DNA of 64,000 nucleotides, taken from the NCBI RefSeq assembly GCF_023897065.1, contig NZ_JAMHIV010000002.1, positions 1-64,000 on the forward strand. The letters are read 5' to 3'. The DNA is from Crossiella sp. SN42. GTDB lineage: Bacteria > Actinomycetota > Actinomycetes > Mycobacteriales > Pseudonocardiaceae. Below the pieces are notes generated by a model that was not told the origin of the DNA, did no database searches, and saw nothing but the letters and a program-made list of their open reading frames with translations. The translations under genes were made by a program, and so were the position numbers. Positions 321 through 64,000 of this stretch are shown here, piece by piece. The first letter of the stretch is position 1. Every line of letters starts with the position of its first letter.

Positions 321-1823
321 CTAGCTCATGTGGCTGATCTCCGGCCAGAGGTCGTCCCAAGATCGCGTGACGTTCTCGCAGAGCCAGATCTTGCCGCCCT
401 GTTCGCGGTTCTTGATGCCCAGGTTGTTGCGGATCTCGGCTTCGTAGCGGAGGTTGGTGCAGGCTTTCTTCGCCCAGGCAGGGGGTTCTGGGCTCTTGGC
501 GGGCTGGATCAGGATGGCGTTCCGTGCTGTCGCCGGGGGGCGTTCCCAGGCCGCGTAGCCCCGGTATCCACTGTGGACGGTGGGGAGGCCCCTGGTGCGG
601 CCGTAGCGGTGCAGGGCGGCTGCCTCGCCGAAGTTTTCGGCGATGATGACGGTGGTGCCGCGTTGGGCTGGGGGGAGGGTGTCGTAGACCTTGGTCACGG
701 TGTCGGTGAGTTCCGGCCAGCCGAACTGTTCGGCGGACAGGCCGTTCATCTGGATCACCGGGATGCGGTCGAGCTGGCTTTCCGGGACCAGGGGCAGCGC
801 CAGGGGGAGGATGAACACCGCGGAGAGGACGCCGGCGGTGGTGGCCACGGCGGTTCTCGCGTTGCCCTTGGCTCGGGACAGCCAGCCGTCCACGGCCAGC
901 GCGCCTGCCGCGAGCAGAGCCGGGTAGCCGCCGAACAGGTACAGGGGGGAGCCGCCGCCGGCGATCAGGGCAACCGTGAGGATGAGGAAGGCCGCGCCCA
1001 GGAAGCGGAACTGCTGGGTGCGGAGCAGGCGGACCAGGCCGGCCAGCCAGAGTGGGGTGAGCAGGGGGCCGATGGCCAGGGCCTGCATGGCGAGGAAGAG
1101 GGCCGGGCCGCCTCGGTCGGTGTTGCCTTCGCTGAGGATCTTGGCCATTTCCAGTTGGGGCCAGCCGTTTTCGTACTGCCACAGCAGGTTGGGCAGCCAG
1201 ATCAGGACCGCCAGGGCTGCCCCGGCCCAGAGCCAGGGGGTGCGGAACAGGGAACGGGGGCCGGCGAGGAGCAGGGCCAGCAGGAGGGAGGCGACCACCG
1301 CGCCGATGAGGTACTTGTTGTGCAGGGCCACGCCCAGGATCGCGCCCGCGGCCAGCAGGAGTTTGGGGTTGCCGCCGCGGATCACCTTGACCAGCAGCCA
1401 GATCACCGCGGCGGTGAAGGTGATGTCGAAGGTGGTGGTGTGCAGCATGTGGCCGGGGATCAGGACCATGCCGGACAGCGCCGTGGCCAGGGCGGCCAGG
1501 GTTTGGGCGCGGTGGGTGCCGCCCAGCTCCCTGGCGGTGAGGGTGACGAACAGGACGGTCAGTCCTGCGGCCAGTGCGGCGGGGAAGCGCAGGGCCATCA
1601 TGGAGTCCGGGACCAGGAAGTCCATCAGGGCCGCGATCATCGGGGTGAAGCTGGGCTGGTCGGGGTAGCCCCAGGCCGGGTGCTGGCCCGCGACGATGAA
1701 GTACAGCTCATCGCGGTGGTAGCCGTAGCCGCCGCTGAAGGCGATCAGCGCCAGGGCGGTCACGGCGGGGATCGCCAGCGCCGCCCTGGACAGCGCCGGG
1801 CGCACCGAAGTCTCCTGCATCAT
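321..1823 (-). CDS. GT39-type membrane glycosyltransferase (ArnT/PMT-like)
   Basis: A 500-aa polytopic membrane protein. The first extracytoplasmic loop, just after the first membrane segment, carries HRDELYF followed by PDQPSFTP. This is typical of the ArnT/PMT-like GT39 family, which moves sugars from polyprenyl-phosphate donors to acceptors outside the membrane. About ten further hydrophobic segments follow, then a soluble C-terminal domain of roughly 130 residues ending in a Trp-rich tail. Start codons ATG at 1823 and 1820 are adjacent; neither has a strong ribosome binding site. It lies 70 bases after the ROK regulator on the same strand. Acceptor and donor cannot be told from the sequence. 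One copy of the dispersed palindrome (566-578) encodes VHSG here. Confidence 0.8.
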   Translation of the reverse strand: MMQETSVRPALSRAALAIPAVTALALIAFSGGYGYHRDELYFIVAGQHPAWGYPDQPSFTPMIAALMDFLVPDSMMALRFPAALAAGLTVLFVTLTARELGGTHRAQTLAALATALSGMVLIPGHMLHTTTFDITFTAAVIWLLVKVIRGGNPKLLLAAGAILGVALHNKYLIGAVVASLLLALLLAGPRSLFRTPWLWAGAALAVLIWLPNLLWQYENGWPQLEMAKILSEGNTDRGGPALFLAMQALAIGPLLTPLWLAGLVRLLRTQQFRFLGAAFLILTVALIAGGGSPLYLFGGYPALLAAGALAVDGWLSRAKGNARTAVATTAGVLSAVFILPLALPLVPESQLDRIPVIQMNGLSAEQFGWPELTDTVTKVYDTLPPAQRGTTVIIAENFGEAAALHRYGRTRGLPTVHSGYRGYAAWERPPATARNAILIQPAKSPEPPAWAKKACTNLRYEAEIRNNLGIKNREQGGKIWLCENVTRSWDDLWPEISHMS

Positions 1824-1893
1824 GGCGGGAAGCCTGCCGGGGCAAGGGTTTCCCGGCCATGGGTCTGCGTCCCTGGCCGGGGTGGTGCCAGGT

Positions 1894-63000: not shown

Positions 63001-64000
63001 CTCGTGCGCGATCACCACGCCCTTGGGGCGGCCGGTGGAGCCGGAGGTGTAGATGCTGTAGGCGGCGTGCGCCGGGTCCAGCGGGAGCAGGCGGTCCGCG
63101 TCGGTGATGTCCACATCGGACAGTGCGGTCAGCTCGTCGGTGATCCGGTCCAGTTCTTCGGCGGTGAGCACCAGGATCGGGTCGGCGTCGGCGATCATGA
63201 ACTCGATCCGGTCGGCCGGGTAGGCCGGGTCGATCGGCAGGTAGGCCGCGCCGGACTTCAGGATGGCCAGCAGCGCGACGATGGTCTGCTCGGTGCGCGG
63301 CATGGCGATGCCGACGAACCGCTCCGGCCCGGCGCCCTGGCCGATCAGCCAGCGGGCCAACCGGTTCGCCCGCCGGTTCAGCTCGGCGTAGGTCAGCTCG
63401 CGGCCGGCGTGGGTGACCGCGACCGCCGCCGGGGTACGCGTGGCCTGGCGGGCGAACAACTCCGGGTACAGCGCGGGTTCCACCGCCAGTGCGGTGTCGT
63501 TCCAGCCACGCAGCACCTGCTGCCGCTCGGCACCGGTGAGCAGCGGCAGTTCGCCGAGCGGGGCCTCCGGGCTGGCCAGGATTCCGTTGAGCAGGACTTC
63601 CAGGTGCTCGGTGAGCCGGGCGATGGTGCTGCCGTCGAACAGGTCGGTGTTGTACTCCACCGCCACGGTCAGCCCGTCGGCGCGCGGCCAGAACTCGCAC
63701 ACCAGGTCGAACCGGGACCGCGGGCGCGGCAGGTCCTGCTCGGCCAGGCGCAGCTCACCGATGGCGCGGGGCCGCACGATCGCGTTCTGCAGCACCACCA
63801 GGGCCTGCACCAGCGGGGTGCGGCTGGCGTCCCGGTCCAGGCGCAGCTCTTCCACCAGGCGGTCGAACGGGGCGTCCTCGTGCGCGAAGCCGGCCAGCAC
63901 GGTCTCCCGCACCTGGGCGAGGAACTCGGTGAACGGCAGCTTGCTGTCCACTGTGGACCGCAGCACCACGGTGTTGACCAGGAACCCGGCCAGGCGTTCC
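47989..64000 (-). CDS. nonribosomal peptide synthetase (NRPS-A), N-terminus outside the window
   Basis: The frame is open to the right edge, starting inside a condensation domain ([16 protein letters not shown]), so the true start lies beyond 64000. The visible 5.3 kb of protein holds (C)-A-T-E / C-A-T-E / C-A-T-E / C-A-T. HHxxxDG, SGSTG-PKG and GGDS motifs are intact throughout. The third E domain has a large Ala/Thr-rich insert (52147-52655). The last carrier domain differs from the rest ([13 protein letters not shown]) and is followed by an acidic tail ([15 protein letters not shown]) that may dock to NRPS-B. The stop at 47989 is 16 bases before the NRPS-B start, so both genes share a message. 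It builds at least the first four visible residues, three of them D. Confidence 0.97.
51090..56059 (-). other. NRPS-A module 3: C(DCL)-A-T-E with insert, Val predicted
   Basis: C about 56030-54740, A about 54610-53200, T around 53065, E about 52900-51100. The code reads D-A-Y-W-W-G-G-T-F-K (Val-like). The E domain is interrupted by an Ala/Thr-rich stretch before HHLAIDG; catalytic motifs on both sides remain. Confidence 0.85.
52147..52655 (-). repeat. Ala/Thr-rich low-complexity insert in an E domain, with tandem repeats
   Basis: About 170 residues made almost only of Ala, Thr, Gly, Pro and Ser, lying between the strand [10 protein letters not shown] and [13 protein letters not shown] of the epimerisation domain. 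The other E domains have a short loop of 20-50 residues at this place. At DNA level, 52271-52297 is repeated exactly at 52298-52324 (27 bp, encoding GTAGTAAMA twice), and degenerate copies of GTCCCGGCC and GTCGCAGCC surround it. The frame is kept. Confidence 0.9.
56060..60489 (-). other. NRPS-A module 2: C(DCL)-A-T-E, Val/Ile-like
   Basis: C about 60430-59160, A about 59060-57620, T around 57480, E about 57340-56070. The code reads D-A-Y-F-W-G-A-T-F-K, a branched aliphatic pocket. E keeps HHLLVDG. D residue predicted. Confidence 0.85.
60490..64000 (-). other. NRPS-A first visible module: C(partial)-A-T-E
   Basis: C (C-terminal part only) about 64000-63540, A about 63480-62040, T around 61890 with the variant [10 protein letters not shown] about 61740-60490. 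The code reads D-V-F-S-V-A-I-V-Y-K; I cannot assign it with confidence. The A domain belongs to a different lineage from the other eight ([17 protein letters not shown]). The C domain looks LCL type, so an L residue probably precedes. Confidence 0.8.

What the first reader, a model, noticed from the sequence alone, without database searches (positions are those of the whole stretch)
566..63958. Highly iterated 13-bp palindrome GTCCAC(A/T)GTGGAC, constrained at DNA level
I count 18 exact copies and about 20 near-copies in 64 kb. A simple estimate at about 70% GC predicts well under one exact copy. Real genes read it in all three frames: as STVD (for example 35886, 51085), as VHSG (566, 42428, 54309) and, in variants, as PLRT or PQGT (27710, 34108, 56336), so protein function cannot explain it. 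It also forces A/T-ending codons such as ACA, ACT and AGT in genes that otherwise prefer C or G. Variants keep the outer GTCC and GGAC while the core drifts. This looks like a highly iterated palindrome comparable in style to cyanobacterial HIP1, perhaps a site for methylation, mismatch repair, nucleoid binding or recombination. I know of no description of it, but cannot search.
Basis: partly seen in the sequence, partly recalled or inferred. Interest (0 to 1): 0.8.

Follow-up and report, generated by a model that had tools for sequence, protein, structure and literature searches.

The report
Iterated palindrome matching a PadR operator
A 13-letter DNA palindrome is repeated hundreds of times in genomes of one family of antibiotic-producing bacteria, mostly inside genes and kept by evolution, and it nearly matches the control site in front of a small DNA-binding regulator gene beside cell-division genes, which suggests that this regulator binds the chromosome at those sites.

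Summary
GTCCACWGTGGAC occurs 18 times in the window and 473 times in the 9.72 Mb genome (Crossiella, Pseudonocardiaceae); the reversed control occurs 0 times. Codon-preserving shuffles give 0.12 copies in window genes against 18 seen. Copies lie mostly inside genes, rewrite the protein (STVD), and keep A or T at a synonymous centre. Orthologous copies persist in other Crossiella genomes far above background. The 18 window copies are about 11 independent positions; 17 lie in two NRPS genes.

New lead: the palindrome, as two imperfect copies about 22 bp apart, stands before a conserved padR gene (70 of 80 named loci; control 0 of 1325) that precedes prfB in 80 of 80. PadR homologues with other neighbours carry it too. 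Pseudonocardiaceae genera lacking the operator pair, or PadR, hold few or no copies. I infer that the copies are binding sites of this PadR. Binding is unproven, the function (titration or nucleoid role) is guesswork, an operator pair does not guarantee many copies, and no methyltransferase was tested. Ten paper searches showed no description.

The parts
12283..12295 (.). exact copy GTCCACTGTGGAC
29454..29466 (.). exact copy, STVD frame in NRPS gene
31071..31083 (.). exact copy, STVD frame in NRPS gene
35886..35898 (.). exact copy, STVD frame; homologous to 43368, 51085, 60472 (centre T/A/T/A on the + strand)
36642..36654 (.). exact copy, STVD frame
38022..38034 (.). exact copy, STVD frame
38558..38570 (.). 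exact copy, VHSG frame; homologous to 54309, 58740
40275..40287 (.). exact copy, STVD frame
42428..42440 (.). exact copy, VHSG frame; homologous to 55119
43368..43380 (.). exact copy, STVD frame
44475..44487 (.). exact copy, STVD frame
46983..46995 (.). exact copy, STVD frame; homologous to 63946
51085..51097 (.). exact copy, STVD frame
54309..54321 (.). exact copy, VHSG frame
55119..55131 (.). exact copy, VHSG frame
58740..58752 (.). exact copy, VHSG frame
60472..60484 (.). exact copy, STVD frame
63946..63958 (.). exact copy, STVD frame, near the N-terminus of the open frame (VVLRSTVD)
27710..27722 (.). half-site variant GTCCGAAGTGGAC (same variant at 34108)
28386..48014 (-). NRPS gene (condensation, AMP-binding and PP-binding domains in the 4999 residues scanned) holding 11 exact copies
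47989..63969 (-). NRPS gene (4999 residues scanned) holding 6 exact copies

Best explanation
The iterated palindrome is the binding site of a conserved PadR-family regulator (PF03551; predicted winged helix with a C-terminal helical arm) encoded just before prfB, ftsE, ftsX and smpB, all on one strand (in G000 contig C8 at about 121563-122060, minus strand; outside the window). Shown: iteration, DNA-level constraint, orthologous retention, and the same palindrome conserved as a double site in front of padR. Inferred: that PadR binds it; that the two imperfect sites (each with one perfect and one degenerate half) autoregulate padR and perhaps prfB-ftsEX; and that the several hundred fully symmetric copies are stronger chromosomal sites, which PadR must fill before it represses itself. 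Most likely role: a sparse nucleoid-type or titration network. Hundreds of mostly intragenic sites hold PadR on the chromosome and set how much free PadR is left to act on its own operon.
For: (1) An alignment made without using the motif, of 14 hand-picked padR upstream regions (12 named genera plus two metagenome bins), shows AGCCACWGTGGACaGA.cGgc..GaCCA.TGTGGACAGC as a conserved block. (2) Of 80 named loci, 70 have two motif-like sites (scores at least 11 and 10 of 13) 21-23 bp apart; 0 of 1325 control windows do (spacing alone 72 of 80, with 67 at 22 bp, against 61 of 1325). The 80 are the best of 505 relatives found. (3) PadR homologues with other neighbours carry it: two exact copies 33 bp apart before the PadR of L066 and TTCCAC-type sites at L122 and L123; no prfB hit in these loci. 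(4) Iterated sites share the outward base of the operator half-site: A after GGAC in 77 of 204 flanks against 14.5% background; operators 130 of 144. (5) Exact-site pairs: 9 of 21 unique listed pairs have spacers of 8-11 bp (operator pair 9), p=0.0007, a range chosen after seeing the data. (6) Genus level in Pseudonocardiaceae: 34 genera with the operator pair hold more copies than 6 without it (one lacking PadR), p=0.0003; genera under 7 Mb, p=0.003. (7) The seven genomes tested in the iterated families f5, f9 and f12 all carry a prfB-linked PadR. (8) Fold: AlphaFold2 mean pLDDT 83.8; best Foldseek hits are PadR structures, 5x11 (with operator DNA; best E-value but TM only 0.47) and 8ioi (TM 0.80).
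Against: No binding was measured. An operator pair is not sufficient: G005 1, G008 1, G020 3, G016 6, G030 7, G006, G015 and G027 9, and g24 0-2 copies despite a pair. prfB-linked PadR without iteration: G047, G049; G055, G057 and G058 have strong PadR homologues and no copies. G048 has 8 copies with no such PadR found, but is 82% complete. G043 has 1 copy against 114 in its congener G056, both with prfB-linked PadR. The iterated families outside Pseudonocardiaceae show single sites or another spacing, not the 22-bp pair. Operators vary mostly at positions 1-2 and lose the outer GT on one side, whereas iterated near-copies vary most at 6/8, then 1/13 and 5/9. G039 iterates GTCC...GGAC although one of its PadR homologues has TTCC...GGAA. 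No clear excess of near-copies at operator spacing beside exact copies. Copies per Mb also rise with genome size (rho 0.66), a possible confounder, and the genus test is not corrected for phylogeny. Except, operators were picked by likeness to the motif. Another protein could bind the padR promoter.
Confidence: 0.6

Rival explanations
1. HIP1-style by-product: a DNA methyltransferase or repair enzyme recognises the palindrome and biased repair creates and keeps it, without selection for a function; the PadR operator likeness is secondary.
For: HIP1 and alternate HIPs go with cognate methyltransferases, and Elhai 2015 models them as products of a repair system (PMC4390886; abstract and part 1 of 2 of its section 3.4 read). 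Palindromic, intragenic, strongly iterated here too.
Against: The PadR operator match, half-site flank and pair spacing are unexplained by it. No methyltransferase was searched for, so this rival is weakened, not excluded.
Confidence: 0.15
2. DNA uptake or transfer sequence: fragments bearing the motif are preferentially taken in and recombined, so copies spread by drive (as recalled for Neisseria DUS and Haemophilus USS).
For: Conserved copies inside genes, some at N-termini that I judge tolerant by eye; such drive would mimic selection.
Against: Uptake sequences that I recall are not perfect palindromes with a free A/T centre; the link to padR is unexplained; competence was not examined.
Confidence: 0.07
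3. A different sequence-specific protein binds both the padR promoter and the genomic copies.
For: The conserved block lies in a promoter region; a protein other than the gene product could use it. Iterated and operator sites differ in which positions vary.
Against: PadR homologues with different neighbours carry like palindromes upstream (L066, L122, L123).
Confidence: 0.15
4. Protein-level or common-descent artefact of NRPS repeats.
For: 11 of 18 window copies are in 4 homologous groups.
Against: 473 copies genome-wide; codon shuffles; 16 of 17 STVD peptides in genes of 400 kb use TCC-ACW-GTG-GAC though ACW is about 5% of Thr codons; unlike contexts in G011.
Confidence: 0.01

Closest known systems
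HIP1 and alternate HIPs of cyanobacteria (GCGATCGC; Elhai 2015, PMC4390886)
   Same: Perfect palindrome, hugely over-represented genome-wide, unevenly present among relatives.
   Different: 13 bp with an A/T centre instead of 8 bp; about 1 per 20 kb instead of about 1 per kb (the density stated in the paper's section 3.4); linked here to a PadR regulator; methyltransferases not tested.
PadR-family autoregulated repressors (B. subtilis PadR 5x11, Rv1176c 8ioi)
   Same: PF03551 domain, PadR fold, palindromic sites in front of the gene itself.
   Different: Hundreds of mostly intragenic copies of the operator-like palindrome; the PadR cases I recall have few, promoter-proximal targets.
DnaA boxes and datA titration (recalled; actinobacterial box TTGTCCACA)
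   Same: Shares GTCCACA and the idea that chromosomal sites titrate a regulator.
   Different: Copies are symmetric and mostly lack a leading T (after GGAC an outward A in only 77 of 204 flanks); padR was found to carry the palindrome (dnaA was not looked at).
Lsr2 of actinobacteria (PMC6584129; title and start of abstract seen in the listing)
   Same: Chromosome-wide binder that represses gene expression; the window's NRPS genes are rich in copies.
   Different: Lsr2 binds AT-rich DNA; here a specific 13-bp palindrome. Clusters are uneven: of the 100 listed copies of G002, a dense group lies at 3.48-3.60 Mb and none at 4.98-5.03 Mb, both with PKS-like genes.

Membership tests
Highly iterated palindrome (HIP-type) | Perfect palindrome far above chance across the whole genome, in coding DNA | tested here: met
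Highly iterated palindrome (HIP-type) | Cognate DNA methyltransferase present | not tested
   No methyltransferase search was made
HIP1 itself | Sequence GCGATCGC, about one per kb | tested here: not met
   Different sequence; 473 in 9.72 Mb
PadR-family regulator (for the gene linked to the motif) | PF03551 domain and PadR fold | tested here: met
   Pfam PadR 33.5 bits against cutoff 27 (PqqD also passes, 26.9 against 23.4); AlphaFold2 and Foldseek
PadR operator (for the iterated sites) | Same palindrome conserved in front of padR | tested here: met
   70 of 80 loci with the pair; alignment; most sites match 10-12 of 13, rarely all
PadR operator (for the iterated sites) | Bound by PadR | not testable with these tools
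   Needs EMSA or ChIP
Ordinary transcription-factor regulon | Sites concentrated at promoters | tested here: not met
   Exact copies outside called genes: 1 of 14 (G000 C1), 9 of 45 (G011); no higher density than in genes (crude gene calls)
REP / extragenic palindrome | Located between genes | tested here: not met
RNA hairpin element | Other stems with the same loop (covariation) | tested here: not met
   GTCC stem 32 and 45 times, other stems at most 1 each
DNA uptake sequence | Biased uptake | not testable with these tools
   Needs transformation assays

The most novel reading that the evidence does not exclude
A PadR regulator has become a chromosome-wide counting device: several hundred strong, evolutionarily maintained sites inside genes soak it up, so free PadR, and with it expression of padR-prfB-ftsEX-smpB through two weaker operators, reports how much chromosomal DNA the cell holds and ties release factor 2 and the FtsEX division complex to DNA content.
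Probability: 0.18. Interest if true: 0.93.

Novelty: new variant of a known kind. Interest (0 to 1): 0.77.

Why it matters
Why some bacterial genomes accumulate highly iterated palindromes is still debated for HIP1. Here is an independent case, in antibiotic-producing actinomycetes, with a named candidate protein and a natural series of genomes from 0 to 640 copies, including lineages that lack the operator pair or the protein. This makes the question directly testable by one ChIP-seq and one deletion. It would also show a one-component regulator acting as a chromosome-wide protein, with possible ties to division genes and to biosynthetic megagenes.

Tried and rejected
RNA hairpin GUCC-N5-GGAC: rejected, no stem covariation. 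Protein motif STVD: rejected, codon evidence. NRPS descent: explains local density only. Mobile or inserted repeat: the flanks of the 45 G011 copies share no context beyond weak neighbouring-base preferences. An alternative iterated form TTCCACWGTGGAA: 13 of 60 relatives have any, at most 3 copies. Other iterated palindromes in PadR-bearing G047 and G049: none stood out in 200 kb each. Near-copies at operator spacing around each exact copy: no clear excess (4 seen at 20-24 bp against 2.2 expected, 94 sites). oriC or terminus bias: not tested properly; only the first 100 of 193 Y-flanked copies of G002 (of 488 copies in all) could be listed; 100 in 5.6 Mb and 93 in the remaining 4.45 Mb look even. 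Synteny from contig starts of G002 and G003 failed (0 alignments); block matching through a shared site pair worked. A PadR reported as a WhiA target in Streptomyces venezuelae (PMC3781837, passages read) is not shown to be the same gene. Literature: 10 paper searches (listings only, except the two papers named here) showed no description of this motif; the 20 papers holding its letters look unrelated by title and start of abstract.
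Full report
WHAT WAS CHECKED. The window holds 18 exact GTCCACWGTGGAC and 45 matches within two mismatches against 2.55 expected. The spacing GTCC-N5-GGAC is special: 41 against 0-9 for every other spacing 0-15. The genome (9.72 Mb, 82 contigs) holds 473 exact sites and 0 of the reversed control. 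The relative G001, of the window's genus, has a contig of the same length (1,315,984) as Crossiella sp. S99.2, so I place the window in Crossiella, family Pseudonocardiaceae.

CONSTRAINT IS AT THE DNA LEVEL. Shuffling synonymous codons within genes gives 0.12 copies in window genes (18 seen), 0.12 in 400 kb of contig C1 (13 seen) and 0.72 in G011 (36 seen). In C1 the peptide STVD occurs 17 times, 16 of them as TCC-ACW-GTG-GAC, although ACA plus ACT make up about 5% of Thr codons; the C/G-centre form occurs 0 times in genes of C1 and of the window and 2 times in G011. Single-mismatch copies (70 in 1.14 Mb, against 80 exact) vary most at positions 6/8 (27), then 1/13 (19) and 5/9 (12), hardly at 2/12 (6), the centre (4), 4/10 (2) or 3/11 (0). 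Frames: STVD dominates, VHSG is second. In one NRPS linker four modules carry the site with centre T, A, T, A (+ strand) and a fifth carries GTCCGAAGTGGAC.

EVOLUTION KEEPS THE COPIES. In orthologous blocks of four Crossiella genomes, copies of G003 persist as exact copies in G002 8 of 8, G001 8 of 8 and G000 4 of 4, where random 13-mers are identical in 17-18%. Towards G003 retention is 8 of 11 (from G002), 8 of 12 (from G001) and 4 of 7 (from G000), same background. G000 to G002 5 of 6, G002 to G000 5 of 5, G000 to G001 7 of 7 and G001 to G000 7 of 7 (background 33%); G002 to G001 and back 10 of 11 each (background 59%). Some retained copies swap A for T at the centre; of the eight non-retained comparisons printed (rows from G000 and G002), none is an intact copy with a C/G centre. 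These comparisons share sites and are not independent.

DISTRIBUTION. Of 60 relatives 42 have copies; of 397 genomes of the order 130 do. In Pseudonocardiaceae counts run from 0 to 640. Outside it, three families reach 23-237 (f5), 1-114 (f9) and 37-74 (f12); f14 has 8 in one 82%-complete genome; other families of the order at most 3. In a phylum-wide draw of 396 genomes 19 had any, and none besides the window's own genome had more than 2.

THE PADR LINK. Two genomes of another family of the order (f8) with only two copies each have both in the divergent promoter of a PadR regulator and a gene that I read by eye as DUF1707. Used as query over 60 relatives, that PadR found a homologue of 94-135 bits in every Pseudonocardiaceae genome of the set and of 118 bits or more in those of f5, f9 and f12. 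Strong homologues also occur in G047, G049, G055, G057 and G058, which have no copies. A scan of named genomes kept 80 loci of 505 relatives; padR precedes prfB on the same strand in 80 of 80, with ftsE seen in 78. In G000 ftsX and smpB follow (named by me from their sequences). Two of the 80 record titles name other taxa (a Rhodococcus and a Melainabacteria bin), probably misnamed. Upstream, 70 of 80 have two motif-like sites 21-23 bp apart; 0 of 1325 control windows do. The ten without are labelled Actinopolyspora (6), Pseudonocardia (2) and Actinoalloteichus (2). An alignment made without using the motif shows the same block (14 loci picked by hand). Each operator has one perfect half GTGGAC(AG) and one degenerate half (72 pairs by spacing, two of them weak), whereas iterated copies have two perfect halves and share the outward A (77 of 204 flanks against 14.5%). 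Of 21 unique listed exact-site pairs, 9 have spacers of 8-11 bp, p=0.0007 for a range picked after the fact.

CO-VARIATION. From I classed 40 Pseudonocardiaceae genera by hand, most from one to a few genomes: 34 with the operator pair, 6 without (g5, g23, g57 Actinopolyspora, g59, g62, and g60, whose one-contig genome G289 has no such PadR and 0 copies). Copies are fewer in the six (0-14 per genome): p=0.0003, or p=0.003 among genera under 7 Mb. This is not corrected for phylogeny, and copies per Mb also rise with genome size (rho 0.66). Exceptions are told in the Against line.

MECHANISM. Shown: iteration, constraint, retention, operator likeness. Inferred: PadR binding; autoregulation; symmetric copies stronger than operators. 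Guess: titration or sparse nucleoid role. Intragenic location (13 of 14 and 36 of 45 copies inside called genes) argues against a plain regulon. The listed copies of G002 look even except for a dense stretch at 3.48-3.60 Mb near PKS-like genes (PKS read by eye). The PadR model (AlphaFold2, mean pLDDT 83.8) matches solved PadR structures.

NOVELTY. HIP1-like in kind, new in sequence, lineage and candidate protein. Ten paper searches showed no description; no preprint library is held there.

Noticed in passing
window 3973, 30035, 33098, 40571, 48336, 57651, 62067: A second iterated palindrome CGTTG-N5-CAACG: 7 in the window against 0.06 expected; 136 in the genome against 13 for the reversed control, 275 against 27 in G010, 172 against 9 in G011. 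Spacer not conserved; around the GTTG-N5-CAAC core in G011 an A/T base is common at the fourth outward position (71 of 88).
   Followed up: partly
L073 and L075, position 1501: Two genomes of g57 (Actinopolyspora), nearly free of copies, share one exact copy in a similar spacer about 255 bp upstream of a gene I read by eye as a SLATT-type membrane protein.
   Followed up: no
G011:C1 93752-181852 (loci L026-L031): An 88-kb stretch without exact copies in the genome with the most copies of those counted; the other gaps in 400 kb are at most 35 kb.
   Followed up: no
G056 and G043 (same genus, family f9): 114 copies against 1 within one genus, both with the prfB-linked PadR.
   Followed up: no
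L088-L091: A pair of copies 27 bp apart is conserved in all four Crossiella genomes inside a helicase-like gene (by eye); the first reads PLWT, the second STVD.
   Followed up: partly
padR promoters, about 20 bp before the start codon: A further conserved element CGTGGCAC.GTgG lies between the proximal operator and the start codon in the 14-locus alignment, possibly part of the promoter.
   Followed up: no
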